64,000 nt of DNA from Ctena decussata. Taxonomy: Eukaryota > Mollusca > Bivalvia > Lucinida > Lucinidae. A program made the translations under genes and the position numbers. The notes under the pieces were generated by a model. It had not been told where the DNA came from. It saw only the letters and a program-made list of their open reading frames with translations, and ran no database searches. The stretch is taken from NCBI GenBank assembly GCA_963989385.1, contig OZ022499.1, forward strand, positions 50,581,757-50,645,756, given 5' to 3'. Shown here piece by piece: positions 35,804 to 56,873 of the stretch (position 1 is its first letter; each line of letters begins with the position of its first letter).

Positions 35804-37894
35804 TCAGACAATCTGTTCATCTGCCAACATGTATGTCTTTATAATTCTTTTCTTTGATAGGTATTCTGTACTAACTCTGGCTGAAAATGACCCAGTGATA
35901 CTGCTGAATGGAGGAGGGGTGTGAGAGCAGAGACTCAAGTTCCCATCCTTATCAACCGTCACCTCAGTGAGCGAGCTGAAATCTTTCTCATTTCCATCAA
36001 CGATCCAAACCGAGCGATCGTCTGACGCATATTCCCCGAAAGAACAAGGATAAAAGCTGCCCTGCTTGTTGAAATCAAACAGATGACTGTTGAAGGAAAC
36101 CTCACTGCCACTAGAAGGTGTTAAGGTGCGACTGTTATATTTATATTCATAGGAACAGTAAAGTCCACTCAACTGGCTTTCTGGTTTGATATCCGCGACT
36201 TCGAGAATGAAGAATCTGTCAGTGCCTTTCAATATCGCAAGTTCCCAGAATTTTTTCTCTGGCTTTGGCTTAGCTAAATCTTTGCCTTTCTCTGGGTAGA
36301 TCTGATAAATTTTTGGCTGCGCCTCATTTAGATAGGCAACATACCCACAAACAAGCTCGTCATTGTAAAACAGAATCATCATTTCATTGCTGACACTGCT
36401 TATGCCAACAAAAGTATGGTCACCATCTGCAAAATGAGGGTAATCAAATCTTTCGGTGGCAAACACCTGACTCGTGGTGTTGTCTGCCATCAGCTTGCAG
36501 CAAATGAAACAATACCGATACTGTGTCTCTTCGTCATTGTAAGAACGCTCATCAGATCTTACTTCCACGAAGTGGACTATGTAAATGTTACTGTCAGATG
36601 ATACTATTCGGTTTGTAAGACAATCTAAATATTCACCTGGATTATCATACTGATGATCATGGTCCGATTTTGTGCCCTTACATGTAACATCTTCCAAATG
36701 AAAACTTACAGGGTCAATGTCCATAGGGTGTATATAGAAAACTTTGTCCTTAAAATATAAGTAGTCATTATCTCCCGCATCCCTCATAATGCCCTTCATA
36801 GCTCCTTTATCATAGAATTGTGAAATGTGATACCACAATTTCTCTTGAGGCTGATAAGCACAAACATTGAAAAGAGGTTCAGACGCTGGGTGTGGCTTTC
36901 TATAGTTACTATGAAGAAGATTATGTATAGCGCTATTTCTGTCTATCAGGTATTTTCTTGGAGAGATTGTGATTATGACTTGTTCTAACTCTGAAGCTGC
37001 TGTGGATCCCTTTGGCCCTTTATCCTTTTGTCTCCTGTTGAGGGCTTGTTTACATTTTATTTTAGATTTCCTTTCATTCTTAAAATTAGACAATGCTGAT
37101 AAAGATAGAAATTTCTCCTTCAACTGTTTGCTGCATTCACTATCTGCAATCTTAACTGCCAGTTCATAGAAGGTTTTCCTCACTTCTGTGACCTGCTCCT
37201 CATCAATTTTCATTACATTTCTATCCAGCTGGGAAGCAATATAATCAAGCACATCTGACCCTACAGCAAGACGTTTATCACAAGCGTCCAGTTCAATCCA
37301 CTTAACCAGGAAATCCAAGACACTAACAGCAGGACAAAATTCAAGAACACCAATCCTGAACAAATGTGAGAATTCCTCAGGTTTGAGATTTAGAGTTTCT
37401 TCTTGAAACAGAAGGAAGTCGTGAAACCTGGACTTGACAACTGCCTCAAGATTCTTCTCCAATGACGGGAAACCATGCTCTGAGGCGCAGAAGTAATATT
37501 TAATACTTGAGCTCAAATTAAAATTCTTTAAGATGAATTCTGTGCAGAATTCTTGCAACTTTGTCATTAAAAAGAATGAAGAAAGTCTCATAAGAGTTTC
37601 CAGATTCTCACTGTGAATGTCTATTTCACCCGTGTACATGAAACTCAAGATATCGTTCATAGCACCAGTATCTTTTGTAGTTGCTGACAAATCAATTTCT
37701 GTCTTGGAAGCATCAGTAAACCGGCCCAGAAATAGTGATTTGAAATAATCAGATCCCAATACAAGCACATTCTTGTGAGCATGTAATTCATTTTCACCGA
37801 TTTTCAAACTGACATCGTAACAAGTACTTCGGAGTTCATTCATGCTTTGCAGGAGAGCACTAGAGTGTCCATCTTCAACCTTGTACAGTACCAT
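35804..37894 (-). CDS. BTB-BACK-kelch-like protein, single coding exon
   Basis: The 696-residue product has a BTB/POZ domain at about 25-125 (DVSLKIG, HAHKNVLVLGSDYFKSLF, FMYTGEIDI), a BACK domain at about 130-240 and a long C-terminal region (about 290-680) that looks like a degenerate kelch propeller, ending with HTPPPFSSITGSF. Proteins of this type usually dimerise through BTB and serve as substrate adaptors of cullin-3 ubiquitin ligases; the substrate is unknown. I chose ATG 37894 (A at -3, G at +4) over an upstream in-frame TTG. An acceptor-like TTTGCTTTTCAG (intron end at 37937) precedes it, suggesting a 5' UTR intron. The coding exon is uninterrupted and intact. It is paralogous to 57731-59764. 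The LTR retrovirus lies 0.3 kb upstream in the same orientation. Confidence 0.9.
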   Translation of the reverse strand: MVLYKVEDGHSSALLQSMNELRSTCYDVSLKIGENELHAHKNVLVLGSDYFKSLFLGRFTDASKTEIDLSATTKDTGAMNDILSFMYTGEIDIHSENLETLMRLSSFFLMTKLQEFCTEFILKNFNLSSSIKYYFCASEHGFPSLEKNLEAVVKSRFHDFLLFQEETLNLKPEEFSHLFRIGVLEFCPAVSVLDFLVKWIELDACDKRLAVGSDVLDYIASQLDRNVMKIDEEQVTEVRKTFYELAVKIADSECSKQLKEKFLSLSALSNFKNERKSKIKCKQALNRRQKDKGPKGSTAASELEQVIITISPRKYLIDRNSAIHNLLHSNYRKPHPASEPLFNVCAYQPQEKLWYHISQFYDKGAMKGIMRDAGDNDYLYFKDKVFYIHPMDIDPVSFHLEDVTCKGTKSDHDHQYDNPGEYLDCLTNRIVSSDSNIYIVHFVEVRSDERSYNDEETQYRYCFICCKLMADNTTSQVFATERFDYPHFADGDHTFVGISSVSNEMMILFYNDELVCGYVAYLNEAQPKIYQIYPEKGKDLAKPKPEKKFWELAILKGTDRFFILEVADIKPESQLSGLYCSYEYKYNSRTLTPSSGSEVSFNSHLFDFNKQGSFYPCSFGEYASDDRSVWIVDGNEKDFSSLTEVTVDKDGNLSLCSHTPPPFSSITGSFSARVSTEYLSKKRIIKTYMLADEQIV

Positions 37895-38185
37895 CTTTGG
37901 GAGACGAGTTTCAGTCAAAATTCACAATTACTTCACCTGAAAAGCAAATGAGTAATATGATGACCATAAATTTTGGGATTTCCTAGCCAATAACCATCAC
38001 AGAATGGATGTCCTGACACTTAATCCTTAATGCTCCAAAAAGCAGGCGACAAAATTTACGTCTGCAGAATTTCAAAAAATGCTTCGTCCAAGTGTATCAA
38101 ATTGAGAATTCGAATACTAGAGGGCAAACAGTGTAGATTCAGATGAGGTGGCTCATTATGAGCCACCTCATCTGGATCTACACTG

Positions 38186-38521
38186 TGTCCCACAGTCCCT
38201 AGGAGGGATCTAATGAATAACAAGTGATCGTATAGTTTCTACATGTTTTTATTATCTACTTCTAACAACCCAGGTATCCCATTCAGCCAAGTTCTACATA
38301 ATCAAGTTCAAATCCAAATCTAAAATCCAACTCCGCGCTTACCTGCCAGGGGAGGTCTTTTATACTTTCTACTGGGACTATTTCTTGGGATATTACTACG
38401 CTTCTGAAATATCTACGCAATTTCGAAAGGGGAGCAATTTGTCTGTGATCTAGTTCAAAGGGTGAATGTTTACAAATATATTAACCTAATAAAATGACAA
38501 CTACATGTGCACTCTGTGATA
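38186..38521 (-). repeat. 3' LTR
   Basis: The 336 bp copy is downstream in the element's orientation. The AATAAA at 38253-38248 (minus strand) is a plausible polyadenylation signal. It differs from the 5' LTR at two positions (around 38297 and 38405). A short purine stretch, CGGGAGGT (38530-38523), just upstream is the only polypurine-tract candidate. Confidence 0.92.
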
Positions 38522-40032
38522 GACCTCCCGTAGCAAGTCATTTTATTGTTTCACACTATCATGCATTTAGTATTTGATTTATAAATTGTTTTTAAAATAG
38601 TGAATAAATTATTTATATAATTATTACTTATGCTTAAAAATGACATTACAGTTAAAGTACTTTAGTAAGCAATAAACATTAAAATTAAAATATATAAAAG
38701 ACTTGAAAATTATCAATACTAAACAAACAAATACGTGACTAAATTGTGATTTCTTTACTACAGTTTATTCCAATAAAATCAATAATGTTTTCATTAGTGA
38801 AGTTCTTCGCTTCTAAAGTTCCAAATTATTCGTAAATTCTAATCCCGTTTTTTTTTTTTTTTCTAAAACAAAGTACAATGCACACATCCAGTTCGTTTAC
38901 TCATTTATAAGTCCGTACAGCCATCCTTCTGAACAGTTTATTCTGTTTGTGTCCCCACCAAACAATGCGTTATTTGCTGCAGTTGTCGTCCCCTGTGACG
39001 ATCTATACAGGACAACACCACCTCTTGCGCCACCTCACTCGCAAATTCTTCCGGGGTCACATCCATCCATAGCCCCCTCACGTTGATGATATACATTACT
39101 ATTCTGTAAACCATATCCATTAGCTCCGATGTATTTATCCAGATCATGATTGAGAATAATTTTAAATTGTTTTACTATTGTTTTCTTTTTGTAAGTAGTT
39201 GTATGCTGGAAGTAAATTTGTTGTGTAATTGTTTCTGTGCTCTTCATTATGTTTTTCTTGTAGGCCAAAATGTTTTCTTTTTACGTAATTGCGAAAATTG
39301 TTCCTAATTGTGTGTCTAAATGTCCAGGTTATCTGTAATTTCCATTGGGCTTTAGTTGTTTAGCTTTAGTCAAAAAAGTTCCAAGTAGATTATAATTTCC
39401 GATAGTTTTGGTTTCATATTTCACAGGTAACAGAATTTCCAGGAGAATGTCTTGAGCTAATCAATGTTGATATTTTCTTATCGATTTTATGTTCCGAAAT
39501 ACAGGGAAAGTTTTTTAAATTTCTCAGGTAATTGAGTTCCACAGGAAAAATATATCTATAGTCAATACAACTGTTCAGTCCCGGTAGTATATGGATGAAA
39601 CTGCGCACTCTATTTCTAATGCTAGTCCAGGTCTTCACAATCCACTAAATGGTTTCTCGATGTATGTCCGTTGTATGTTTTATCTCATTAATGTCCATGA
39701 CAGCAATTTTAGAAGAATAGTTTCGTGACAGTCTGCTACTGTTTTACTTTGACTTGGCAACACCAATATATACATATCCAGTAAACAGTTCAAAGTTGGC
39801 TGATAATTTAATCGTATGCACCATAGCACAAATATTAATGCAGCATTATGACGATATATACATATATACTTGACACTTCTAACATGAGTTAATTGCTGCT
39901 TTCTACATAACGGTGCATTTTAATTATAGTTATTATCAGGATCCTGGGTTATACACAATATATCCAAACAACACTGCAACAACATATAGTTTCTTTAACA
40001 CACATAGTTAATCAAAACGACAAGTCATGTAT
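38522..40032 (-). other. Long 3' region between env and LTR
   Basis: This is 1.5 kb of AT-rich sequence between the env stop and the 3' LTR. Small minus-strand frames occur (69 codons at 38938-39147, with MDVTPEEFASEVAQEVVL; 74 codons at 39414-39638), but none resembles a known protein. A T-run lies at 38850-38862. It may be a long 3' UTR, an accessory region or decayed sequence. Confidence 0.5.
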
Positions 40033-42057
40033 TTACAATCTAGTACTAGATTCAACTTCCCTATGTTCACTTCTCGTGGCGTCACTGTGGAATAGCATAG
40101 GATAAAGTCTCTTAACCATTTCCACATCCCCTTCTGAGTGTGACGGGCAAGACGGTATTTGTCCATCTCCGGCTAACTGTAAGCCATCCACTGTAGTGGG
40201 ACCCGCCGTGGTGCACGGTTGTTCAGTGTCACCAGCATCACGCCTGCACTCTCTCGATTTTATGGCAGAACAGAGGCTCAACATCTTACCTTTATAACGT
40301 TTATAAAGGACGCAGCCAGCTATGATTACTAATATAATTGCAAGTGCAATCCAAAAATATGTCCAAATGGGCCATTTAGAAGACTTCATGTTGACATTCT
40401 GCATATAGTGCAGTCTGTCAATCAAGTGTTGAAGAGGTATTCTCGGAATATCCTTAAGTTGCTGTGGAAGAGAGACAGTAGACATATTTGGCAAAGTTTC
40501 AAGAAAAGGCGACCATATTCTCTCTTGAGAAATGTTTATGTGTTTAAGTAAGTCAAGGTTACTATCCACTAGGTCGAATTCGCTATTTGTTTCATAGGAA
40601 GAACTAAGCGTCATGTACAAATTAGATGCTATGCAAGAAGCTGGGATTTGTAGCAAATGTACTGGGGGCTTAGTAGTCCTAGTTTCACTTGAACCATGTT
40701 CACAAACGAGAGAGAATTGAAGTTCTGTTTTTGATGCAATTGCCCAAATGGAGTCATATAAGTATACTCCAATTGGAAGTTTGGTGTTTAAGGTTACCAT
40801 ACTCTTACAATATGTTTGAATAGATTCCGAGTTCTTCAGAAACAGGTGAACAAGACAGAGTTTAGCTAAATTTACTGGAAAAATTGGTTTAGTAACACTA
40901 CACCATTTGATTGATGGGTCACTGCATTGGTCAGTTTCGTCTTTGTTCAAAAGCGCGTATTTAGTTCGTCCTTGGTCAATCATTAGACCATGGGCTTCTA
41001 AGTCATAAGTCGCAATCATATCAGGTGCATAATCATTATCTGTTTTGACCCCTTTTATGGTCAGTGGTAATCCATGTGCTTTAAATATTTCAAATCGATT
41101 GCTTGTGTGCAGGACGGGAATACTTAGTGCTATAATAATTCGGTCATCTTCCAACAAAGCACTTGAAGCTAGTTGTCGGTAGAATAAAAATAGATCTTTA
41201 GCTGGATCACCAATTAGTGATAATGTTGTAGGTAATTTAGACTTTATTTCTGATAAGAGTTGTCTAAGGTTTCTTGGGCTGATACTGCTCATAGATAAGC
41301 GACCTAAACTTAGAAAGTTAAGTTGTGTTTTCAAGTTTTCCAAATAGAATAACCCATTTTGTAGCATGTCCTTGAGCTCATTTATAATAAGGTCAAGCTT
41401 AAGGTACATTTCTAGAAAATACTTGTTTTCATGTATTTGCCTTTGCAATGCATCTGCAATATTTGCAAGTTTGGAATCAAGTCCTTGTAAGCTTCTAACT
41501 AACTCCATGATTGCTTGCCTGTTTTCAGATACTTCAGCACGTGTCATATTAAGGATTGTAATGCTGTCTTCAACGACATGGATTATCTCTTCTTGGTTTT
41601 GAGCCAAAAATGCAATATTTTTGCGAATGTTTTCAATTTCATCTTGAGTGACTAATCCAAATAAAAATGACCCTATGTCCCCTATGAAATTGAAAGGAGC
41701 ACGTTTTTGCCTAGTATGCAAAAGTTTATAGTCAAGAAGTCCACTAAGTAGATGTTCATGTGTCCCATTTAAAAATTGCAGCTCTTTTTGCAAGGACTCA
41801 AATGTGTTTAGATACTCTGTCTTGTTAGGCCTGTTATATTTACTAACAATGCACTCAGCGGTAACTGCAGCCAGGTGAAGGTCATTCTGCAGTTTCGATA
41901 AAAACTGACTAAAAGGCCTCAGGTCAATTACAAAAGTAGCCAGCCACTTCGCTCTAGTGGTCGAAATTTCATTAGTTTTATGAAATATGACATTTTCACT
42001 GACAAAGATGGCCTCTGTTAAGCCTAAAATTAGTGCAGTAAATAACTGTGTCCTCAT
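40033..42057 (-). CDS. env: Envelope-like fusion glycoprotein (baculovirus F / errantivirus Env type)
   Basis: The 674-residue product starts at ATG 42057, three bases after a strong acceptor-like site. The ORF continues upstream to an ATG at 42120, an alternative start. It opens with a signal-peptide-like segment (TQLFTALILGLTEAIF). A dibasic furin-type site RQKR at 116-119 is followed by a small/hydrophobic stretch beginning APFNFIGDIGSFLFG, typical of fusion peptides in this family. Heptad-rich helices follow (about 125-240), then several N-x-S/T glycosylation sites, a membrane anchor at about 563-585 (FWIALAIILVIIAGCVLY) and a cytoplasmic tail of about 88 residues. A short N-terminal and long C-terminal fragment is the layout of baculovirus F proteins, not of vertebrate retroviral Env. 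The expected role is membrane fusion of enveloped particles. Confidence 0.87.
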   Translation of the reverse strand: MRTQLFTALILGLTEAIFVSENVIFHKTNEISTTRAKWLATFVIDLRPFSQFLSKLQNDLHLAAVTAECIVSKYNRPNKTEYLNTFESLQKELQFLNGTHEHLLSGLLDYKLLHTRQKRAPFNFIGDIGSFLFGLVTQDEIENIRKNIAFLAQNQEEIIHVVEDSITILNMTRAEVSENRQAIMELVRSLQGLDSKLANIADALQRQIHENKYFLEMYLKLDLIINELKDMLQNGLFYLENLKTQLNFLSLGRLSMSSISPRNLRQLLSEIKSKLPTTLSLIGDPAKDLFLFYRQLASSALLEDDRIIIALSIPVLHTSNRFEIFKAHGLPLTIKGVKTDNDYAPDMIATYDLEAHGLMIDQGRTKYALLNKDETDQCSDPSIKWCSVTKPIFPVNLAKLCLVHLFLKNSESIQTYCKSMVTLNTKLPIGVYLYDSIWAIASKTELQFSLVCEHGSSETRTTKPPVHLLQIPASCIASNLYMTLSSSYETNSEFDLVDSNLDLLKHINISQERIWSPFLETLPNMSTVSLPQQLKDIPRIPLQHLIDRLHYMQNVNMKSSKWPIWTYFWIALAIILVIIAGCVLYKRYKGKMLSLCSAIKSRECRRDAGDTEQPCTTAGPTTVDGLQLAGDGQIPSCPSHSEGDVEMVKRLYPMLFHSDATRSEHREVESSTRL

Positions 42058-42060
42058 GTT

Positions 42061-42075
42061 CTGAAAATACAGAAA
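42061..42075 (-). promoter_or_regulatory. Candidate 3' splice site for env mRNA
   Basis: TTTCTGTATTTTCAG on the minus strand is a pyrimidine-rich acceptor ending three bases before the env ATG at 42057. Together with the donor at 47255/47254 it would remove gag and pol. Confidence 0.6.
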
Positions 42076-42228
42076 CATAAACGCGGGATTACTATGATGT
42101 AAGACGAGAACATCATGCATATCTCGCAAGTAACTTAATTACGTTACCATCTTGACTGAAGCTTAAAATTGGAGCCTAAAGCAAACCGTTTATTATAACA
42201 GAAACTATATATACACGTATGTCGAGGG

Positions 42229-42255
42229 TGTTTTTTTTTTTTTTTTTTTTTTTTT
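42229..42255. repeat. Poly(T) tract in pol-env spacer
   Basis: A run of about 27 T on the plus strand (A on the element's coding strand) lies in the 165-base gap between the pol stop and the env ORF. Confidence 0.85.
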
Positions 42256-42294
42256 CACCTCTCCAAGATACATGTATATATCACTGAAGTACAT

Positions 42295-45200
42295 CTAATC
42301 GATAGACATACCTTCTTCACCGATTTCTGTACATGACTCACTGTCCCAGTTATCAGACATTTCCTGATGATTTTCTCGGTCAGACATCTGGGAAGATTGA
42401 TCTGATTCACCATCACTTGTCTGACGCGTGCTAGCCTTGAGGCGTTTTGCCAGCTCCATCAGGGGAATATCTTCTTCACTGTCTGAGTCATGTCTTTGTC
42501 GGCGATAACGCTGTGCGATACGAGCTAAAGGTACCTTTTCGTCATCGGAGCTACTCTCTGTCTGTGATTCATCACTTACTGGCGGTATCACATAATTTGT
42601 TTTTCTCAACATGTGACCTTGGATTTGTGGAATTTTCCAATCATCTACATGTGCTTGACGTATGTCTTGAGCATGCACCTTGTTGACGACCGTGCCATCA
42701 AGCTGATTTTTCAAGACAAATGTAACTGGACCCGTCTTTTCAATAATTCTAAAATATGGCTTCCAGTCAACATTGAGTTTACTGCCTTTCTTATGCACTT
42801 TGTAGAAAACTGGATCACCCACTTCGTAAGTGATAGATTTTGCATTACGATCTGCATACTTTGCATATCGTTTCTTCGCCTGCTTCAGACGATTATGAAC
42901 CAAGACAAAGGACTTATGTTGTTGCTCCAATGCAATTTGATGCATGTCTTCACCTGTGTACTTGCGCCTAGGTCTTAAAATATTATCTAGTGGCAGTACA
43001 ACATCACGATTGAATAATAAGAAGAAAGGTGAAAATTTTGTTGACTCATTGATATTGAACCTAATAGCGGCCAGTGTTTGGTTAAGATACAAGTCCCAAG
43101 TGCTCAAATCATCTTGCAACTTCTTTGATAAGATATCATGTAGGGTTGCATGAAATTTTTCAATTTTGCTGTTTGATTGCGGGTGGTATCTACTTGTTCT
43201 TACATGATGTATGTTCAAGGTCTCCAGAGTGTCCTTCATGACCTTGTTTACGTTCTCAGTTCCGTTATCAGATATCATCTCTAACGGACATCCATAACGA
43301 GGGAATATTTCATCAATGAGCAAATGAGCTATGTTATCAGCACTCTTATCAGGAACAGCGTATGCTTCAGGATAACCGCTATAAAGATCAATAAATCCAA
43401 CAATGTACTTGTTTCCTGACAATGAAGTTGGATATGGGCCAGAAAGATCTAACCCAATTTTTGCAAAAGCATATGGTGGAATATCGGTCATTTGTAACGG
43501 TGGTTTGACCGACTGTTTGCTCCGCATTTGACATATCATGCATTGAGAAATGTAGTCATACAATTCCTTGTATAACCCTGGCCAGTAATATTTTTGCCTT
43601 ATTGCATCAAAGGTCTTGTCTAAACCCATATGTCCATTGAGGTCATGATATTGGTCTATGACGTGACCTTTAAGGTGTTGTGGAACATATAACCTTAGTG
43701 TGGGATTAGAGTCAACATCTGAGATGTAATACAAAATATCATCAATAATGATGTGCTTCTGTTGCACTGTCTTGGAAACTTTGTCATTTTGAAGGCCTAA
43801 TTTTACCTCCATCAATGTATTGTCCTTTGATTGTTCAGCCACTATATCAAGGTCATCCCCTAAAGTAGGTTTCTCTAGAGAATCTGTAGGCTGCAATGTA
43901 CACCGTGCATAGTCCCTAGGACTAAATCTGTTGGAATTCAGTGCACCAATTTCGTATGTTTTGTCGCTTACCTCTGGCTCATATGCCTTGTCCTCCTCCT
44001 GTGATAACCCAACATTTTGTGGGATACGTGACAATAAGTCTGCACAGGAGTTATCGGACCCTTTAAGATACTCGACTTTGCAGTTGTAGCCTGCAATACC
44101 TAACGCCCAAAGTTGTAATTTTTTATTCTGTAGATTAGGCGTGTCCAAGATGTATTTCAACGGTTTATGATCGGTTCTGATCACAAACTGCGCACCGTGC
44201 AGATAATGATCGAGTTTCTGCAATGCAAAGTGAATAGCATAAGCCTCTTTTTCTATGGTGGACCACCTAGTTTGTGTATCACTTAACTTATGCGAAAGAT
44301 AGTAAATAGGTTTCTCATTCCTAGAATTTGGATCAGAGCCATCATGATCATCACAAGGTTGCGTGAGACAGGCACCAATACAGTCATTTGAAGCGTCTGT
44401 GTAAAGCACATATGACCTATTTGGGTCAGGATAACCTAGCATTGGGAATTCTGCCAACTTATTTTTCAGCGTTTCGAATGCTGTCTGACATTTGGAATCC
44501 CGCCGATATTTGGCATACTTCCGAGTTAATGCTATCAATGGTTCTGCAATGTCCGAAAAACGGGGAATAAACCTGCGATAGTAACTGCACATTCCAATGA
44601 AACTACGCACCTCTTTGACACTCTGCGGGGGTGCTAAAGCTTTGATAACATTGACTTTCTTTTCTTCAGGTTTAATTCCATGGTCATTGACAACGAAACC
44701 CAAGTAAACTGTCTCTGCCTTCAAAAAACTACATTTCTTTAATTTCAGCTTTAAACTATGTTCTCTCAGCCTATGAAATACGGTCTGGATGTGAGCCAAA
44801 TGTTCTTCCAATGAACTGGAAAAAATTAGAATGTCATCCAGATAAGCTACGGTAAACTTGTCCAAGCCCTCAAGAACATGAGACATCAAATTTTGAAAAA
44901 CTGCTGGTGCATTGCATAATCCAAAAGGCATCGTATTGAACTGATAAAGACCTTTGTGACATGCAAAAGCTGTCTTTTCTTTACTATCATCATCCATCAA
45001 TACCTGCCAATAGCCACTTTTTAAATCCAGTGAAGTGAAGTATTTTGCCTCACCCAGTAATGCCAAGATATCATCTATTAACGGAAGAGGGTAGGAATTT
45101 GCTTTTGTTATCTTATTTAAAGCTCTAAAATCAACACAAAATCGTTTAGACCCATCCTTCTTATCAACTATGACCACTGGAAAACTCCAAGGAGATTTTG

Positions 45201-46242
45201 ATCTTTCAATTATTTTGGCCTCTAACATTTCAGAAATAGCATCATCAATAATCTTCCGATTATTTAAGGGAGTATGATATGGCCTACGGCGTATTGGTGG
45301 ATGGTCTCCAGTGTCAATTTTCATTGTGACTGTATCAGTATGGCTCAACTGAGAATCCTTTTGTGCAAATAAATCTGCATTACTTTGCAACAATGGAAGG
45401 ATCTTTTCCCTGTACTCGACAGGTACATCAACATCTTCGAAAGTTTCTAGGTGACCTTCAGAGGCTTGTACTTTAGATGATTCATTCACCGACATAATTC
45501 TTTGACCTTGAACGCGTTCTATTTTTGCTACAGGACACCCTTTTCTAATGGTGAACGTTTTATTTGTGTTGTTAACAATTAGAACAGGAATAATTCTGCT
45601 TGATTTGACTTTTCCTATAGAATTTGATACCATAAGACCAGGTTCATAACTTAGAAATCCAATTTCTAAAGGTGTAATTTCATATGTTTCATTCAGTGGT
45701 ACTTCTGGACTTTTCCGAACTTTACTTTTGCAGATAACTGCAGTCTGTGGCCTAATTTTAATCTTATTTTGTGCTCGTACCACCGAAGAAATATGAATAT
45801 CTTCCTGTAGAGGGATGTATGTCTGATGCACTCTTATGCAACCCAAATCAAAGTAGAGACGCACACCATTTTTCTGCAACCAATCACGCCCTAAAATTAG
45901 TCTTCTATTCATTTTTCTAACAACATAAAAGGTATGACTCATTTTTAAACCTCCAATTTCAAATGGCATATCAACAGCTCCGTCTACTAGCAACGTTTCG
46001 CCATTAACGGACTGCAAGTATGCCTTCTTATTTTGCAATTTTGGTTTAATCTTTAAGCTGTCATATACATGTCGATGCATCAGAGATACTTCTGCCCCAG
46101 AATCTAGTAGTGCTCTATACTTTTGTTTCTGTACTTTAATCAATAAAGAATTTGGATTTCCAGTTAAAGCTATAATAAAAGTAGGTTTGCTCTTTTTGCA
46201 CCTTTCGCCGGCTTCGGAACGAAAGGGGTATTTTAGTTTCCC
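42295..46242 (-). CDS. pol: Pol polyprotein: protease, RT, RNase H, integrase (made by -1 frameshift)
   Basis: The pol frame has no good ATG. It is open from the GGGAAAC slippery site (46242-46236) and gives about 1315 residues after the shift; positions below count from codon 46143. Aspartic protease LLDSGAEVSLMH is at about 12-23. Reverse transcriptase has FCVDFRALNK and the catalytic YLDDIL at about 431-436. RNase H has YTDAS near 580. The integrase has an HHCC zinc module (HDLNGH...CMIC, about 828-866), a DDE core (D in GLDLSGPY near 895, D in ISDNGTEN near 957, E in SKIEKFH near 993) and a GPY/F-like module (DWKPYFRIIEKTGPVTF). The acidic C-terminal tail repeats a PLxxLAxR-like motif. 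All catalytic residues are present, with no stop or frameshift. Confidence 0.93.
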   Translation of the reverse strand, partial: GKLKYPFRSEAGERCKKSKPTFIIALTGNPNSLLIKVQKQKYRALLDSGAEVSLMHRHVYDSLKIKPKLQNKKAYLQSVNGETLLVDGAVDMPFEIGGLKMSHTFYVVRKMNRRLILGRDWLQKNGVRLYFDLGCIRVHQTYIPLQEDIHISSVVRAQNKIKIRPQTAVICKSKVRKSPEVPLNETYEITPLEIGFLSYEPGLMVSNSIGKVKSSRIIPVLIVNNTNKTFTIRKGCPVAKIERVQGQRIMSVNESSKVQASEGHLETFEDVDVPVEYREKILPLLQSNADLFAQKDSQLSHTDTVTMKIDTGDHPPIRRRPYHTPLNNRKIIDDAISEMLEAKIIERSKSPWSFPVVIVDKKDGSKRFCVDFRALNKITKANSYPLPLIDDILALLGEAKYFTSLDLKSGYWQVLMDDDSKEKTAFACHKGLYQFNTMPFGLCNAPAVFQNLMSHVLEGLDKFTVAYLDDILIFSSSLEEHLAHIQTVFHRLREHSLKLKLKKCSFLKAETVYLGFVVNDHGIKPEEKKVNVIKALAPPQSVKEVRSFIGMCSYYRRFIPRFSDIAEPLIALTRKYAKYRRDSKCQTAFETLKNKLAEFPMLGYPDPNRSYVLYTDASNDCIGACLTQPCDDHDGSDPNSRNEKPIYYLSHKLSDTQTRWSTIEKEAYAIHFALQKLDHYLHGAQFVIRTDHKPLKYILDTPNLQNKKLQLWALGIAGYNCKVEYLKGSDNSCADLLSRIPQNVGLSQEEDKAYEPEVSDKTYEIGALNSNRFSPRDYARCTLQPTDSLEKPTLGDDLDIVAEQSKDNTLMEVKLGLQNDKVSKTVQQKHIIIDDILYYISDVDSNPTLRLYVPQHLKGHVIDQYHDLNGHMGLDKTFDAIRQKYYWPGLYKELYDYISQCMICQMRSKQSVKPPLQMTDIPPYAFAKIGLDLSGPYPTSLSGNKYIVGFIDLYSGYPEAYAVPDKSADNIAHLLIDEIFPRYGCPLEMISDNGTENVNKVMKDTLETLNIHHVRTSRYHPQSNSKIEKFHATLHDILSKKLQDDLSTWDLYLNQTLAAIRFNINESTKFSPFFLLFNRDVVLPLDNILRPRRKYTGEDMHQIALEQQHKSFVLVHNRLKQAKKRYAKYADRNAKSITYEVGDPVFYKVHKKGSKLNVDWKPYFRIIEKTGPVTFVLKNQLDGTVVNKVHAQDIRQAHVDDWKIPQIQGHMLRKTNYVIPPVSDESQTESSSDDEKVPLARIAQRYRRQRHDSDSEEDIPLMELAKRLKASTRQTSDGESDQSSQMSDRENHQEMSDNWDSESCTEIGEEGMSID
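46201..46242 (-). promoter_or_regulatory. Programmed -1 ribosomal frameshift signal
   Basis: The heptamer G GGA AAC (46242-46236) is in the gag frame and is followed at once by the gag stop TAA (46235-46233). Nine bases after the heptamer a 7 bp stem can form between CCTTTCG (46226-46220) and CGAAAGG (46207-46201), with a 12-base loop. The -1 frame is open into protease. Heptamer, spacing and stem all fit the standard X XXY YYZ model. Confidence 0.82.
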
Positions 46243-47216
46243 TGACCCTGAACCTGGCCTGGCCTGTTGCCAGTATGTTCCGGAACTACTTTCTTTGCCC
46301 TACATCTTCTGGCAATGTGCCCCGGTTTATGGCAATTCCAGCACACGATAGCAACGCGTGATGTTCCTGACTGATTTCTAACGGCATTGACACTTTGCTG
46401 CCTTGACCTACAATCTTTGGCCTTGTGTCCTATACGATGGCATGCAAAACAACGCTGATCGCGCGCGTGATCGACCTCCATTGGCTCCGGGCCATAATTA
46501 TCAGCATGTGAAACCTGCCTTTGACCACTATGGCTACCAGTTCTTAAATCAAAGCGTTTCCGTAAGTTATGTTCAACTGTGGCTACCGTTATCGCTGCTT
46601 GCAAAGTTGCAGGGTTTTCTCTCATGACCTTCATTTTCATGTAATCATGTGCGAGACCATCAATGAAAAAACCTACAAGTTGCGTTTGTACTGCATCCCC
46701 CATTTGACCTATAAATGCATCCTCGGCCAAGGCCAACAATCTTTCTGCATAAACTTGAATATTTTCATTGGGCTTTTGTCTGACCTTCCTTAGGAGCATC
46801 AATGCATGCTGGGGGTCAGTGACCTCAGCAAATCTACCAGTTAGCTCTGTCCGAATTTGCACCCAAGTGTGATCAGGGTTTGTTTCCAAGTAGCGTTTTA
46901 GAAAGTCGCTAACGGGACCCTTACTAGACTGATATGCTATCAATTTGACCTTATCAGGAGGAACACGAGTCAACACACAGTATTTTTCAATGCTTTTTAT
47001 CCATTCCTTAAAGCTTTTACTGTCACCATCAAACGCCGGAATTATTTTAGCCACGCCCTGTGCACCTACTGAGGTAGACAAACCAGCCACCTGTTCACCG
47101 AGAGTACCCAATACATTTACAAACTGAACGTCAGGAGGTGCAGGTAATTGTTGCTGGGCCTGAGCCTGTTGCTGCTGTTGCAAATGCGCTTGATGTTGAG
47201 CCTGTTGATCCACCAT
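46233..47216 (-). CDS. gag: Gag polyprotein with two CCHC zinc knuckles
   Basis: This 327-residue protein starts at ATG 47216. The first 30 or so residues are rich in Q, A and H, followed by a capsid-like segment (about 55-235, with FKEWIKSIEKYC, LRKVRQKPNENIQVYAERL and FIDGLAHDY, as in Gypsy capsids). Two zinc knuckles CFACHRIGHKAKDC (256-269) and CWNCHKPGHIARRC (292-305) have the C-x2-C-x4-H-x4-C spacing of nucleocapsids that bind genomic RNA. The protein would form the particle. It ends in a GQVQGQGN tail overlapping the frameshift site. Intact. Confidence 0.92.
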   Translation of the reverse strand: MVDQQAQHQAHLQQQQQAQAQQQLPAPPDVQFVNVLGTLGEQVAGLSTSVGAQGVAKIIPAFDGDSKSFKEWIKSIEKYCVLTRVPPDKVKLIAYQSSKGPVSDFLKRYLETNPDHTWVQIRTELTGRFAEVTDPQHALMLLRKVRQKPNENIQVYAERLLALAEDAFIGQMGDAVQTQLVGFFIDGLAHDYMKMKVMRENPATLQAAITVATVEHNLRKRFDLRTGSHSGQRQVSHADNYGPEPMEVDHARDQRCFACHRIGHKAKDCRSRQQSVNAVRNQSGTSRVAIVCWNCHKPGHIARRCRAKKVVPEHTGNRPGQVQGQGN

Positions 47217-47249
47217 AATTTAAGAGAAGCAAGCACAATAAAGATGACA

Positions 47250-47258
47250 CCTACCTTT
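47250..47258 (-). promoter_or_regulatory. Candidate 5' splice site in gag leader
   Basis: AAAG|GTAGGT on the minus strand (cut after 47255) is close to consensus and lies upstream of the gag ATG, where a retroviral major donor would sit. Confidence 0.55.
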
Positions 47259-47354
47259 GCACATCCACGTGTCTGTCTTCTATCTTCTGTTCTGGCACAT
47301 GTTCATGGTATCAAAGTTCAATGTCACATTTGTCACACTCAAAATGTCCCAAAA

Positions 47355-47373
47355 AATCCTGGTCACGGCACCA
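47355..47373 (-). promoter_or_regulatory. Primer-binding site, tRNA-His
   Basis: The plus-strand sequence AATCCTGGTCACGGCACCA equals the 3' end of an arthropod-type tRNA-His (acceptor strand TCACGGC, discriminator A, CCA), so the genome strand would pair with it over 19 bases. It begins 12 bases inside the 5' LTR boundary, further than usual. Confidence 0.75.
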
Positions 47374-47385
47374 AAAGAAGATCCC

Positions 47386-47721
47386 TGTCCCACAGTCCCT
47401 AGGAGGGATCTAATGAATAACAAGTGATCGTATAGTTTCTACATGTTTTTATTATCTACTTCTAACAACCCAGGTATCCCATTCAGCCAAGTTCTATATA
47501 ATCAAGTTCAAATCCAAATCTAAAATCCAACTCCGCGCTTACCTGCCAGGGGAGGTCTTTTATACTTTCTACTGGGACTATTTCTTGGGATATTACTACG
47601 CTTCTAAAATATCTACGCAATTTCGAAAGGGGAGCAATTTGTCTGTGATCTAGTTCAAAGGGTGAATGTTTACAAATATATTAACCTAATAAAATGACAA
47701 CTACATGTGCACTCTGTGATA
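47386..47721 (-). repeat. 5' LTR with TATA box
   Basis: The 336 bp upstream LTR. TATAAAA on the minus strand (47564-47558) is the likely core promoter element; AATAAA at 47453-47448 is the polyadenylation signal shared with the other LTR. Only two substitutions separate it from the 3' LTR. Confidence 0.92.
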
Positions 47722-47772
47722 ACTGTTTGCTAATTCAACTATTTTAATTTTTGGCGCTTTAAGGGTTAAGTG

Positions 47773-51900: not shown

Positions 51901-53398
51901 TTAACAGTGATCAGTCTCAAGGGGACAAGAAGGCAGATATTCTGTTACTGGTGTCAACCTTAGCTGTGTCAAGTCTACTTTACCAGCTACAGCTGCTGTT
52001 ATGCTGGAAAATGGGGGTGGGATGTGTTCCTTCTTCGACAGACACCCGTCATCTCCAAGAACTATTTCAGTAAACTGGCTCCTGTCAGTTATAACACTGC
52101 CATTGAAATTCCATATGACTTTCCCATCATTACATGCCACTTGAGATTCACAAGGGCTCAAACTTTTCAGTATATCACACTTTCCAGCAGTAACACCAGC
52201 CAGATTGCAGGGTGTTAGTGTCCTTGCATCACGATTATACATAGCCTTGCAAGAATATTCAGTTGTATCAAGGTTACGGTCGCACTCACCAACTACATAA
52301 AACTGGCTACAGTCAGTCAAAATATGGCCACATTTGTCAGGGACTATTTGGTTAATTTCAAGGCAGGATTTAGAGTCTATCATAACAGCCTCAGGCTGAT
52401 CTTTATTTAAGTCCACTATGCAACAATAAAGTGTTTCACCTATATCTATATTAAAAAGTATAAGCATGTCACTGCCACTAACACAAGCATATATACCGGT
52501 TTCTTCCTCATTTGTGGCAAATTTCGGTGTACTGCAGATAAAGACCCAGCTTTTATTAGCATCAAGTTTATAGCAAAGGTTGTAATTTACTGTAATCTCA
52601 TCTTCATCAAGATTACGCCCCTTTATGTTAAGAATCAGGTATAAAACTTCATTATCAACAGTCAACCATGTATCAGAATAGTATTCAGCATAATGTTCAT
52701 TCTCTGGAAGATTCTCCAACAGGTGATCAAATGCAATAGATTTGCTTGAGAAGTCTTTTAGATTATAGAGGTAGAGATGATCATCTTCTGGTACCATAAC
52801 CGCCAGACTGTCTTTCACACAAGCATACCTCCATAAATATGATTCACCATGTCTAAGGAGCTTGCTGAATATGTGCTCATCGTTCACAGTTTTAAGATAG
52901 CACCACTGATTCTGAGAGGGAACGAAGAGGCACATATCAAAAATTCCCTCTGTGTATTTCTCTGGAAACTCGGGAGAATAAGCAGCTGTATGTAGGATTT
53001 CCTTACATTTTTCAACAATAATCTCTCTTGGTGACAGAGTAAGTACTACATTCTCCATGACTGATAAATCTTTTTCATTTTGACCTGAATTTTGCCAAAC
53101 AGCTTCTTCCAATTTGTTTCCTGTATCAAGAAGTTTCTTTACAAGTTTAGCACTAATATTATCATTGTCATGTTCTTGTTTCTTCACCACACAGTTCAAT
53201 TTTTCAATACAATTCCTGAATTCAAATTTCAAATCAACTCTGTATTGTGCTTCAGATGTCACTGTCAGGTTTTCTAGTAATTCATTAGCAATCACCAAAT
53301 GTGTGTCAGATATATCTATGTCTAGCCACTTTGAAATGAAAGAAATAATGCTGGGAATAGAGATAAAACTTGAAAAACCCCTTTGATAAATGTGGGAC
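51901..53398 (-). pseudogene. Truncated BTB-kelch-like copy 1 (BTB domain missing)
   Basis: This tandem copy matches residues ~190-677 of 57731-59764, i.e. the end of BACK and the kelch-like region through the stop (51901). Upstream of 53398 the gene is replaced by the 168 bp satellite, so start codon, BTB domain and promoter are gone. Near the junction it carries small compensating indels (YQRGFSSF instead of SKGFFKF), plus substitutions such as C for Y in NQWYYL. The remaining frame is fully open, so loss was recent. The few codons upstream of the junction come from satellite DNA. Confidence 0.85.
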
Positions 53399-53790
53399 AA
53401 GTTCCAAGGGAAATAACTCAAAAAGTATAAATGCCAGAGTTACCATTCTTGCACTCTGCACGTTGTCTCATGTTGATTGATATTTATATGAAGTTTCGCG
53501 AATATAGCTTGAGCGGTTTTCAAGTTATAGAACGGACACGATTGAAACACAATTTTGTGATGGACTAAGTTCCAAGGGAAATAACTCAAAAAGTATAAAT
53601 GCCAGAGTTACCATTCTTGCACTCTGCACGTCGTCTCATGTTGATTGATATTTATATGAAGTTTCGCGAATATAGCTTGAGCGGTTTTCAAGTTATAGAA
53701 CGGACACGATTTGTGACAGACAGACGGATGGACGGACAGACGCCCGGGGAAAAACAATATGTCTCCAGACCCTAAAGGGGGGAGACATAA
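53399..53790 (+). repeat. Satellite monomers and element end, duplicated block 2
   Basis: Two 168 bp monomers (from 53400 and 53568), the ACGG microsatellite and the GGGGGGAGACATAATACC terminus are present. Monomer variants (GCACGTTGTCTC in the first) align this block with 50655 onward in block 1. Confidence 0.85.
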
Positions 53791-54647: not shown

Positions 54648-56145
54648 TTAACAGTGATCTGTCTCAAGGGGACAAGAAGGCAGATATTCTGTTACTGGTG
54701 TCAACCTTAGCTGTGTCAAGTCTACTTTACCAGCTACAGCTGCTGTTATGCTGGAAAATGGGGGTGGGATGTGTTCCTTCTTCGACAGACACCCGTCATC
54801 TCCAAGAACTATTTCAGTAAACTGGCTCCTGTCAGTTATAACACTGCCATTGAAATTCCATATGACTTTCCCATCATTACATGCCACTTGAGATTCACAA
54901 GGGCTCAAACTTTTCAGTATATCACACTTTCCAGCAGTAACACCAGCCAGATTGCAGGGTGTTAGTGTCCTTGCATCACGATTATACATAGCCTTGCAAG
55001 AATATTCAGTTGTATCAAGGTTACGGTCGCACTCACCAACAACATAAAACTGGCTACAGTCAGTCAAAATATGGCCACATTTGTCAGGGACTATTTGGTT
55101 AATTTCAAGGCAGGATTTAGAGTCTATCATAACAGCCTCAGGCTGATCTTTATTTAAGTCCACTATGCAACAATAAAGTGTTTCACCTATATCTACATTA
55201 AAAAGTATAAGCATGTCACTGCCACTAACACAAGCATATATACCGGTTTCTTCCTCATTTGTGGCAAATTTCGGTGTACTGCAGATAAAGACCCAGCTTT
55301 TATTAGCATCAAGTTTATAGCAAAGGTTGTAATTTACTGTAATCTCATCTTCGTCAAGATTACGCCCCTTTATGTTAAGAATCAGGTATAAAACTTCATT
55401 ATCAACAGTCAACCATGTATCAGAATAGTATTCAGCATAATGTTCATTCTCTGGAAGATTCTCCAACAGGTGATCAAATGCAATAGATTTGCTTGAGAAG
55501 TCTTTTAGATTATAGAGGTAGAGATGATCATCTTCTGGTACCATAACCGCCAGACTGTCTTTCACACAAGCATACCTCCATAAATATGATTCACCATGTC
55601 TAAGGAGCTTGCTGAATATGTGCTCATCGTTCACAGTTTTAAGATAGTACCACTGATTCTGAGAGGGAACGAAGAGGCACATATCAAAAATTCCCTCTGT
55701 GTATTTCTCTGGAAACTCTGGAGAATAAGCAGCTGTATGTAGGATTTCCTTACATTTTTCAACAATAATCTCTCTTGGTGACAGAGTAAGTACTACATTC
55801 TCCATGACTGATAAATCTTTTTCATTTTGACCTGAATTTTGCCAAACAGCTTCTTCCAATTTGTTTCCTGTATCAAGAAGTTTCTTTACAAGTTTAGCAC
55901 TAATATTATCATTGTCATGTTCTTGTTTCTTCACCACACAGTTCAATTTTTCAATACAATTCCTGAATTCAAATTTCAAATCAACTCTGTATTGTGCTTC
56001 AGATGTCACTGTCAGGTTTTCTAGTAATTCATTAGCAATCACCAAATGTTTGTCAGATATATCTATGTCTAGCCACTTTGAAATGAAAGAAATAATGCTG
56101 GGAATAGAGCAAAACTTGAAAAATCCCTTTGATAAAATGTGGGAC
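54648..56145 (-). pseudogene. Truncated BTB-kelch-like copy 2 (BTB domain missing)
   Basis: Its visible protein is identical to the corresponding part of the complete gene downstream (57731-59764), including LSKGFFKFCSIPS. At 56145 the gene breaks at exactly the same point as copy 1 (after GTGGGACA) and continues into satellite. It has no BTB domain, no native start and no promoter. It could be transcribed only by read-through from the complete gene 1.6 kb upstream in transcription direction. Confidence 0.87.
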
Positions 56146-56873
56146 AAGTTCCAAGGGAAATAACTCAAAAAGTATAAACGCCAGAGTTACCATTCTTGCA
56201 CTTTGCACATCGTCTCATGTTGATTAATATTTATATGAAGTTTCGCGAATATAGCTTGAGCGGTTTTCAAGTTATAGAACGGACACAATTGAAACACAAT
56301 TTTGTGATGGACTAAGTTCCAAGGGAAATAACTCAAAAAATATAAATGCCATAGTTACCATTCTTGCACTCTGCATGTCGTCTCATGTTGATTGATATTT
56401 ATATGAAGTTTCGCGAATATAGCTTGAGCGGTTTTCAAGTTATAGAACGGACACGATTGAAACACAATTTTGTGATGGACTAAGTTCCAAGGGAAATAAC
56501 TCAAAAAGTATAAATGCCAGAGTTACCATTCTTGCACTCTGCACGTTGTCTCATGTTGATTGATATTTATATGAAGTTTCGCGAATATAGCTTGAGCGGT
56601 TTTCAAGTTATAGAACGGACACGATTGAAACACAATTTTGTGATGGACTAAGTTCCAAGGGAAATAACTCAAAAAGTATAAATGCCAGAGTTACCATTCT
56701 TGCACTCTGCACGTCGTCTCATGTTGATTGATATTTATATGAAGTTTCCCGAATATAGCTTGAGCGGTTTTCAAGTTATAGAACGGACACGATTTGTGAC
56801 AGACAGACGGATGGACGGACAGACGCCCGGGGAAAAACAATATGTCTCCAGACCCTAAAGGGGGGAGACATAA
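56146..56873 (+). repeat. Satellite monomers and element end, duplicated block 3
   Basis: Four 168 bp monomers (from about 56147, 56315, 56483, 56651) precede the microsatellite and terminus. The first monomer has the variant AAACGCCAGAGTTACC and CTTTGCAC, matching the monomer at 50319 in block 1. The block is longer than block 2 by 336 bases, exactly two monomers. Confidence 0.85.

What the first reader, a model, noticed from the sequence alone, without database searches (positions are those of the whole stretch)
38182..47725. Apparently intact env-bearing Gypsy-type endogenous retrovirus in a bivalve-like genome
Seen: ACTG target duplication, LTRs with 2 differences in 336 bases, open gag, pol and env, all catalytic motifs present. 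Known: most metazoan Gypsy elements lack env; env-bearing ones (errantiviruses) are best known in insects. Inference: a recent, possibly still active enveloped metavirus of a mollusc.
Basis: partly seen in the sequence, partly recalled or inferred. Interest (0 to 1): 0.9.

Follow-up and report, generated by a model that had tools for sequence, protein, structure and literature searches.

The report
Young mollusc retrovirus-like element with envelope
A mollusc-type genome carries a recently inserted, apparently complete retrovirus-like mobile element with its own envelope gene; such elements are now known across animals, so this is a good new example rather than a surprise.

Summary
It belongs to a young family in a 1.66 Gb assembly: at least 43 LTR matches; 8 LTR pairs compared differ at 0-4 sites, 7 of 8 with a target duplication. 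One other copy read also has all three frames open; the rest are broken. Pol follows gag in the -1 frame behind G GGA AAC and the gag stop. Env is an F-type (Baculo_F) class I fusion protein. Recency is well supported; infectivity is inferred; the host is inferred to be a mollusc, probably a bivalve. The novelty premise is outdated: envelope-carrying gypsy elements are reported across metazoan phyla (Chary and Hayashi 2025, seen only as cited). Not filed as canonical Errantivirus: its Gag has two CCHC knuckles. New here, as a hypothesis: Env tails of this family often share LYPxL, P[ST]AP and PDZ-type motifs, while this Gag has no classical late motif. New member of a known kind.

The parts
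38182..38185 (.). target-site duplication, 3' side of the element (ACTG on +)
38186..38521 (-). 3' LTR, 336 bp, TATCAC...GGGACA; TATAAA and AATAAA inside (found in the 5' LTR; both sites lie outside the two mismatches)
38522..38531 (-). purine-rich tract next to the 3' LTR (putative plus-strand primer); the same 10 bases precede all 9 LTRs with an internal 5' flank among the 20 printed
38522..40032 (-). 1511-nt stretch between env stop and 3' LTR without a convincing ORF; kept whole or nearly so in 4 and shortened in 3 of 7 other copies read
40033..42129 (-). env, 698 aa from the listed TTG (first Met is residue 4), F-type class I fusion protein
40036..40044 (-). Env C-terminus TRL, PDZ-ligand-like
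   Evidence: motif class recalled
40093..40107 (-). Env tail LYPML, LYPxL (ALIX-type) or YxxPhi motif
40306..40362 (-). Env transmembrane segment (residues 590-608 by hydropathy)
41701..41712 (-). Env furin-type site RQKR, followed by the fusion-peptide-like stretch
42175..42185 (-). putative splice acceptor TTTGCTTTAG|G upstream of env, present in 7 of 7 other copies scanned
42295..46143 (-). pol ORF from the listed TTG, 1282 aa: protease, RT, RNase H, integrase
46201..46226 (-). stem CCTTTCG/CGAAAGG downstream of the slippery site (fold not better than shuffles, z -0.87)
46236..46242 (-). G GGA AAC heptamer directly before the gag stop; pol is in the -1 frame
46233..47216 (-). gag, 327 aa, capsid plus two CCHC knuckles
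47249..47257 (-). putative splice donor AAG|GTAGGT in the leader, in 8 of 9 5' leaders (window included)
47356..47373 (-). putative primer-binding site, 12 nt after the 5' LTR (tRNA-His-type, recalled, not verified in the host)
47386..47721 (-). 5' LTR, 336 bp
47722..47725 (.). target-site duplication, 5' side of the element
38123..38191 (.). palindromic repeat whose end was the insertion target; joining the flanks lengthens the arms from 29 to 33 nt

Best explanation
It is a recently integrated, structurally complete provirus of an envelope-bearing Ty3/Gypsy (Metaviridae) family that has multiplied recently in a mollusc-type genome. Shown by sequence: integration with a 4-bp duplication; LTRs with promoter-like and polyadenylation-like signals; Gag; Pol in the -1 frame behind a slippery G GGA AAC; an F-type Env downstream; several young sister copies. 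Inferred: the LTR drives one RNA; Gag and, by -1 frameshift, Gag-Pol are made from it; a tRNA primes reverse transcription 12 nt behind the LTR; a spliced RNA (leader donor to an acceptor before env) gives Env; Env is cleaved by a furin-like protease and fuses membranes as a class I trimer, so that the family can pass between cells (soma to germ line) and perhaps between hosts.
For: TSD and LTR pair. At least 43 LTR matches in the 1.66 Gb assembly; 8 pairs with 0-4 mismatches, 7 of the 8 with TSDs of 4 or 5 bp. Window and C12:13.74 Mb copies have gag, pol and env open. dN/dS against the window copy: pol 0.20-0.53 in 7 copies, gag 0.23-0.64 in 7 copies that differ, env 0.42-0.92 in 6 copies with dS above 0. 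The 9-mer with the slippery site is identical in 8 distinct copies. Baculo_F in 13 of 17 family Envs; last arginine of the furin site nearly invariant; profile match to PDB fusion protein 9w4d, E 9.4e-16; fold matches to pneumo- and paramyxovirus F and baculovirus F.
Against: No RNA, particle or polymorphism data. Six of the 7 other copies whose pol and env pieces I read have both broken, and one of these has lost most of env, so env is not needed for every insertion. The frameshift stem is no more stable than shuffled sequence. The Env model has low confidence (mean pLDDT 62.5), and its fold matches have low TM-scores and large rmsd. Splice sites are consensus matches only.
Confidence: 0.88

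Rival explanations
1. An env-bearing retrotransposon that spreads only inside the germ line by retrotransposition; Env is a passenger kept by descent and not used for infection.
For: One young copy lost most of env yet has its own TSD and 2/335 LTR mismatches; env dN/dS among copies (0.42-0.92) runs higher than that of pol (0.20-0.53).
Against: Env sequences down to about 30% identity keep the furin-type site, cysteines and membrane anchor over 650-700 residues, which drift would not keep. The env-less copy may have been made in trans or may have lost env after insertion.
Confidence: 0.25
2. A member of the insect genus Errantivirus that reached a mollusc by horizontal transfer.
For: Same gag-pol-env order and F-type Env. 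The Pfam model named Gypsy (PF07253) matches 1 of 17 family Envs, E 5.7e-4.
Against: Gag has two CCHC knuckles, which errantiviral Gags are said to lack. The closest named RTs are mollusc or mollusc-associated. PF07253 did not match this Env at E 0.1.
Confidence: 0.05
3. An old, fixed and dead insertion whose LTRs look alike through gene conversion.
For: Gene conversion cannot be excluded from one individual.
Against: All 8 LTR pairs compared, at separate sites, are nearly identical; three of them are identical within the pair while differing from the window LTR; the window frames are open.
Confidence: 0.05

Closest known systems
Envelope-carrying gypsy elements / metazoan errantiviruses (Chary and Hayashi, eLife 2025 RP108449; not held, known here only from papers that cite it)
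   Same: gag, pol and env between LTRs; reported as widespread across metazoan phyla
   Different: Whether their set of 289 representatives holds this family could not be checked; PBS variation, the LTR-PBS spacer and Env-tail motifs were not compared
Insect Errantivirus (gypsy, ZAM, 17.6)
   Same: LTR-gag-pol-env order; Env related to baculovirus F
   Different: Gag here has two CCHC knuckles, which errantiviral Gags are said to lack; PF07253 not matched by this Env; nearest named RTs are mollusc-associated
Baculovirus F protein (PF12259)
   Same: Furin-type site followed by a fusion-peptide stretch, class I F fold
   Different: Part of a retroelement; the single sequence finds no solved F protein at E 1, only the family profile does
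Steamer and Steamer-like elements of clams and mussels
   Same: Ty3/Gypsy-type elements of bivalves
   Different: Recalled as lacking env; only search listings with abstract starts of papers on them were seen

Membership tests
Metaviridae (Ty3/Gypsy) | LTRs, short target duplication, domain order protease-RT-RNase H-integrase | tested here: met
Metaviridae (Ty3/Gypsy) | RT closest to Ty3 among solved RTs | tested here: met
   Ty3 chains rank first (E 6.3e-104 and 2.8e-86); best retroviral-type RT (Pr125Pol) E 3.9e-38; best 60 of 212 matches shown
Envelope-carrying metazoan gypsy elements | env gene downstream of pol in an LTR element | tested here: met
Envelope-carrying metazoan gypsy elements | pol falls in the clade defined by Chary and Hayashi | not testable with these tools
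   paper not held, no labelled references
Errantivirus (insect genus) | F-type Env related to baculovirus F | tested here: met
Errantivirus (insect genus) | Gag without C-terminal CCHC knuckles | tested here: not met
   two CCHC stretches; feature as stated in PMC2577118 passages
[quoted passage not shown]
   KPYF in place of GPY/F, read by eye in the translation; statement
Errantivirus (insect genus) | pol groups with insect errantiviruses | not tested
   no labelled errantivirus sequence obtained; only a tree with mollusc, pseudoscorpion, axolotl and unlabelled RTs
Errantivirus (insect genus) | Env made from a spliced RNA | tested here: inconclusive
   conserved donor and acceptor consensus only
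Baculovirus F-type (class I) fusion protein | PF12259 match, furin-type site plus fusion peptide, class I F fold | tested here: met
   fold match rests on a modest model

The most novel reading that the evidence does not exclude
In this mollusc retroelement lineage the budding signals sit on Env, not on Gag: the Env tail carries an LYPxL (ALIX-type) and often a P[ST]AP (Tsg101-type) motif plus a C-terminal PDZ ligand, so release would be tied to Env-containing membrane and particles could be aimed at polarised cell contacts. LYPxPhi occurs in 13 of 18 Env tails (shuffles: mean 0.12, maximum 2), P[ST]AP in 7 of 18 (mean 0.06), C-terminal [ST]xPhi in 10 of 18 (mean 0.72); this element's Gag has no classical late motif. 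Against it: shared ancestry is not corrected for; every LYPxPhi also fits the YxxPhi endocytosis signal, which is itself enriched (14 of 18, shuffle mean 8.39); Gags of the relatives were not examined.
Probability: 0.25. Interest if true: 0.65.

Novelty: new member of a known kind. Interest (0 to 1): 0.4.

Why it matters
It gives a young, multi-copy, envelope-bearing metavirus family in a non-insect, mollusc-type genome, where soma-to-germline infection, piRNA defence and env loss (one copy lost most of env) could be studied outside Drosophila. If the Env-tail motifs act in budding, it would show retroelements that put their release signal on the envelope.

Tried and rejected
Env and pol alignments were run against viral contigs: no relatives confirmed among 42 and 32 pattern matches. 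Env against genome contigs: none of 28; pol: 50 of 82 stretches, other Gypsy-type elements 26-44% identical in records filed as bacteria or archaea, probably eukaryotic contamination, of no use for env. A placement among named Gypsy clades was dropped because no labelled references could be had; the RT tree (FastTree, rooted at midpoint, support values not shown) only shows a mollusc-associated clade. Its 87 rows were chosen by me from 159 usable RTs: all labelled ones, all L loci, every third other protein. The frameshift stem was tested as a structured signal: not supported by energy (z -0.87). The U5-PBS region shows no special fold (z -0.19). Rfam found two tRNA matches in the window at gathering scores, ARAGORN one tRNA, a tRNA-Cys. 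The 3' stretch was checked for a fourth gene: no convincing ORF, and 3 of 7 other copies have shortened it. The whole-genome search for all env copies and for the primer tRNA gene did not complete.

Rows dropped: of 25 env clusters, 8 that are fragments or lack the tail (P0009, P0014, P0022, P0023, P0024, P0146, P0147, P0148) were left out of the tail test, leaving 17 plus the window Env. Of the LTR pairs suggested by the 43 matches (at least 11 by my reading), 8 were compared; C3:35.2 Mb was read for pol and env only; the short pairs on C2:105 and C9:17.8 were not examined. The C163 pair (17.6 kb apart) showed no TSD. In the dN/dS counts stop codons were skipped and overlapping matches of broken copies were counted twice in places (up to 716 env codons for 698), so those values are rough.
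Full report
What is there. The element lies on the minus strand from 47721 (5' LTR) to 38186 (3' LTR), flanked by the 4-bp duplication CAGT (ACTG on +). Its two 336-bp LTRs differ at 2 sites. The 5' LTR holds TATAAA at position 158 and AATAAA at 269. The LTRs begin TATCAC and end GGGACA; the same ends are seen in all 20 LTR loci fetched, of 43 matches. Gag (327 aa) matches retrotransposon gag and, below its cut-off, Ty3 capsid models, and has two CCHC stretches. Pol (1282 aa) has protease, RT, RNase H and integrase. Env (698 aa) matches Baculo_F.

Gag and pol. Pol is open in the -1 frame relative to gag. The gag frame ends G GGA AAC UAA, a slippery heptamer followed at once by the stop. The 9-mer around it was found in 8 distinct copies: 7 of 9 5' loci, plus the C3:35.2 Mb copy among the pol pieces; it was not found in L064, and L059 belongs to a copy that is deleted inside. 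A stem follows, but its energy is no better than shuffled sequence. That -1 frameshifting is used is an inference.

Env. The family alignment shows a furin-type site (R143 nearly invariant), a fusion-peptide-like stretch and conserved cysteines. Baculo_F is found in 13 of 17 members, and the Gypsy model PF07253 in 1 of 17, not the window Env. A family profile matches PDB fusion proteins 9w4d and 9w4c at E 9.4e-16 and 2.6e-15; the single sequence matches none at E 1. An AlphaFold2 model (mean pLDDT 62.5, so modest) matches RSV F and NDV F in the PDB (best E 9.7e-11, but TM-scores only about 0.26-0.46 and rmsd above 12), and baculovirus F and arthropod RNA-virus glycoproteins in BFVD. I read this as a class I F-type fusion protein.

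Family in the host genome. The assembly has 1,657,992,415 bases in 245 contigs. The LTR has 43 matches there (a lower bound). I compared 8 pairs of LTRs: 2 (window), 1, 0, 4, 2, 1, 0 and 0 mismatches of 335-336. Seven pairs have duplications: CAGT, TGTG, CCAT, GTTG, TGGC, TGCTG (5 bp) and CACG; the pair on C163 has none. A solo LTR on C14 is flanked by CAGG on both sides. No mutation rate for the host was available; with rates of 1-5 x 10^-9 per site and year (recalled, assumed) the window pair would be roughly 0.6-3 million years old, and the zero-difference pairs younger.

State of the copies. Besides the window copy, 1 of the 7 other copies read, that at C12:13.74 Mb, has gag, pol and env open. 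In the other six, env is split or stopped in C12:73.09, C11:34.46, C3:57.80, C3:35.23 and C163, and in C7:8.24 only the last 108 residues of env were found. Pol is interrupted in C12:73.09, C11, C7, both C3 copies and C163. Gag is open in 7 of 8 5' loci that hold it, the window's included, and stopped in L053. dN/dS against the window copy is below 1 wherever it could be formed: pol 0.20-0.53, gag 0.23-0.64, env 0.42-0.92, with one env fragment without synonymous change set aside. The counts are small, partly double-counted in broken copies, and mix selection with decay after insertion.

Target site. The 3' flank lies in a palindrome. Joining the two flanks in a script lengthens the palindrome arms from 29 to 33 nt, which supports a true insertion into one end of a hairpin-like repeat.

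Relatives and host. Env relatives: 22 clusters in the first search, 25 in the profile search. Among near full-length ones identity runs from 87% to 22%; fragments reach 90-91%. They include a Mytilus edulis protein in which the end of pol and the start of env lie in one product (P0024) and an 'envelope fusion protein' filed under Candidatus Thiodiazotropha endolucinida. The RT is up to 85% identical to proteins filed under Thiodiazotropha, 69% to Magallana gigas and 67% to Haliotis asinina (best 120 of 6217 listed). Thiodiazotropha are symbionts of lucinid clams (recalled), so I read those contigs as host DNA in symbiont bins. An RT tree of 87 sequences puts the window in a mollusc-associated clade, away from the axolotl and pseudoscorpion sequences. 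The host is therefore very likely a mollusc, probably a bivalve; the genome itself is unnamed, and a mobile element is weak evidence for its host.

Prior knowledge. PMC12992720 (passages) describes insect errantiviruses with F-type Env and cites Chary and Hayashi for their presence in many non-insect invertebrates. [quoted passage not shown] PMC12859917 (passages) names cnidarians, ctenophores and tunicates. The eLife paper itself is not held, nor is its preprint. PMC2577118 (passages) states that errantiviral Gags lack CCHC arrays and have lost the GPY/F motif. By the first test this element is not a canonical Errantivirus, although it works like one; the second was inconclusive. PMC12440569 on Troyka (passages) treats another Gypsy-like lineage, rich in bivalves, without env. 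Six searches (one listing, capped at 20 of 203) listed no paper that, by title and abstract start, describes an env-bearing bivalve element; most papers were seen as listings only.

A possible new feature. The cytoplasmic tail of Env is 69-97 residues long and varies, yet LYPxPhi occurs in 13 of 18 tails, P[ST]AP in 7 of 18, and a C-terminal class I PDZ-like end in 10 of 18, against shuffle means of 0.12, 0.06 and 0.72. The window Env has LYPML and ends TRL; it has no P[ST]AP. Four tails (P0013, P0017, P0019, P0021) have none of these motifs, and P0020 has PPEY instead; PPxY itself is not enriched (1 of 18, shuffle mean 0.20). Any YxxPhi, the endocytosis signal, is enriched too (14 of 18, shuffle mean 8.39). 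Gag of the window copy has none of the three classical late motifs; two YPx(1-3)L matches occur in pol. These are motifs with which other viruses recruit ALIX and Tsg101 (PMC2958808, abstract start in the listing). Two searches combining errantivirus or gypsy with 'late domain' listed no paper that, judged by title and abstract start, concerns Env late domains in such elements (listings only). The reading is bold: relatedness is not corrected for.

Primer site. A 12-nt spacer between 5' LTR and primer site is kept in 9 of 9 5' loci, and the site exists in two forms: one in the window and L059, the other in 7 loci. The window form fits the 3' end of tRNA-His as I recall it; the host tRNA gene search did not complete. 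If priming starts there, integrase would have to trim 12 nt from that end, which I cannot explain.

Verdict. A confirmed, young, apparently complete env-bearing metavirus copy in a recently expanding family: a good new member of a known kind.

Noticed in passing
47356-47385: 12-nt spacer between 5' LTR and primer-binding site in 9 of 9 loci, and two alternative primer-site sequences among copies (2 versus 7), as if the tRNA primer had been switched.
   Followed up: partly
38186-38521: LTR ends are TA...CA instead of the usual TG...CA, the same in all 20 LTR loci fetched.
   Followed up: partly
38123-38191: Palindromic repeat next to the element; the left flank also aligns with the reverse complement of the right flank (score 100, shuffled maximum 29), suggesting nested hairpin-type (MITE-like) repeats.
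   Followed up: partly
L074 (G000:C7:8241440-8245900): A young copy of the family keeps only the last 108 residues of env but has a 4-bp TSD and only 2 LTR mismatches.
   Followed up: partly
51901-53421 and 54648-56168, minus strand: Two neighbouring 506-aa ORFs, 98% identical, without any Pfam match at E 0.001.
   Followed up: partly
35804-37918 and 57731-59764, minus strand: Long BTB-domain ORFs (the first also with a BACK match); the 3' LTR lies about 270 bp upstream of the first, in the same orientation, and could influence it.
   Followed up: no
Env model m822013dd9ef0: Fold match to an uncharacterised protein (801 residues) of Abalone herpesvirus (A0A145VUZ2, E 1.8e-19), a possible F-type fusion protein in a mollusc herpesvirus.
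   Followed up: no
L001-L050: Gypsy-type pol sequences in 50 loci of genome records filed as bacteria or archaea; probably eukaryotic contamination.
   Followed up: no
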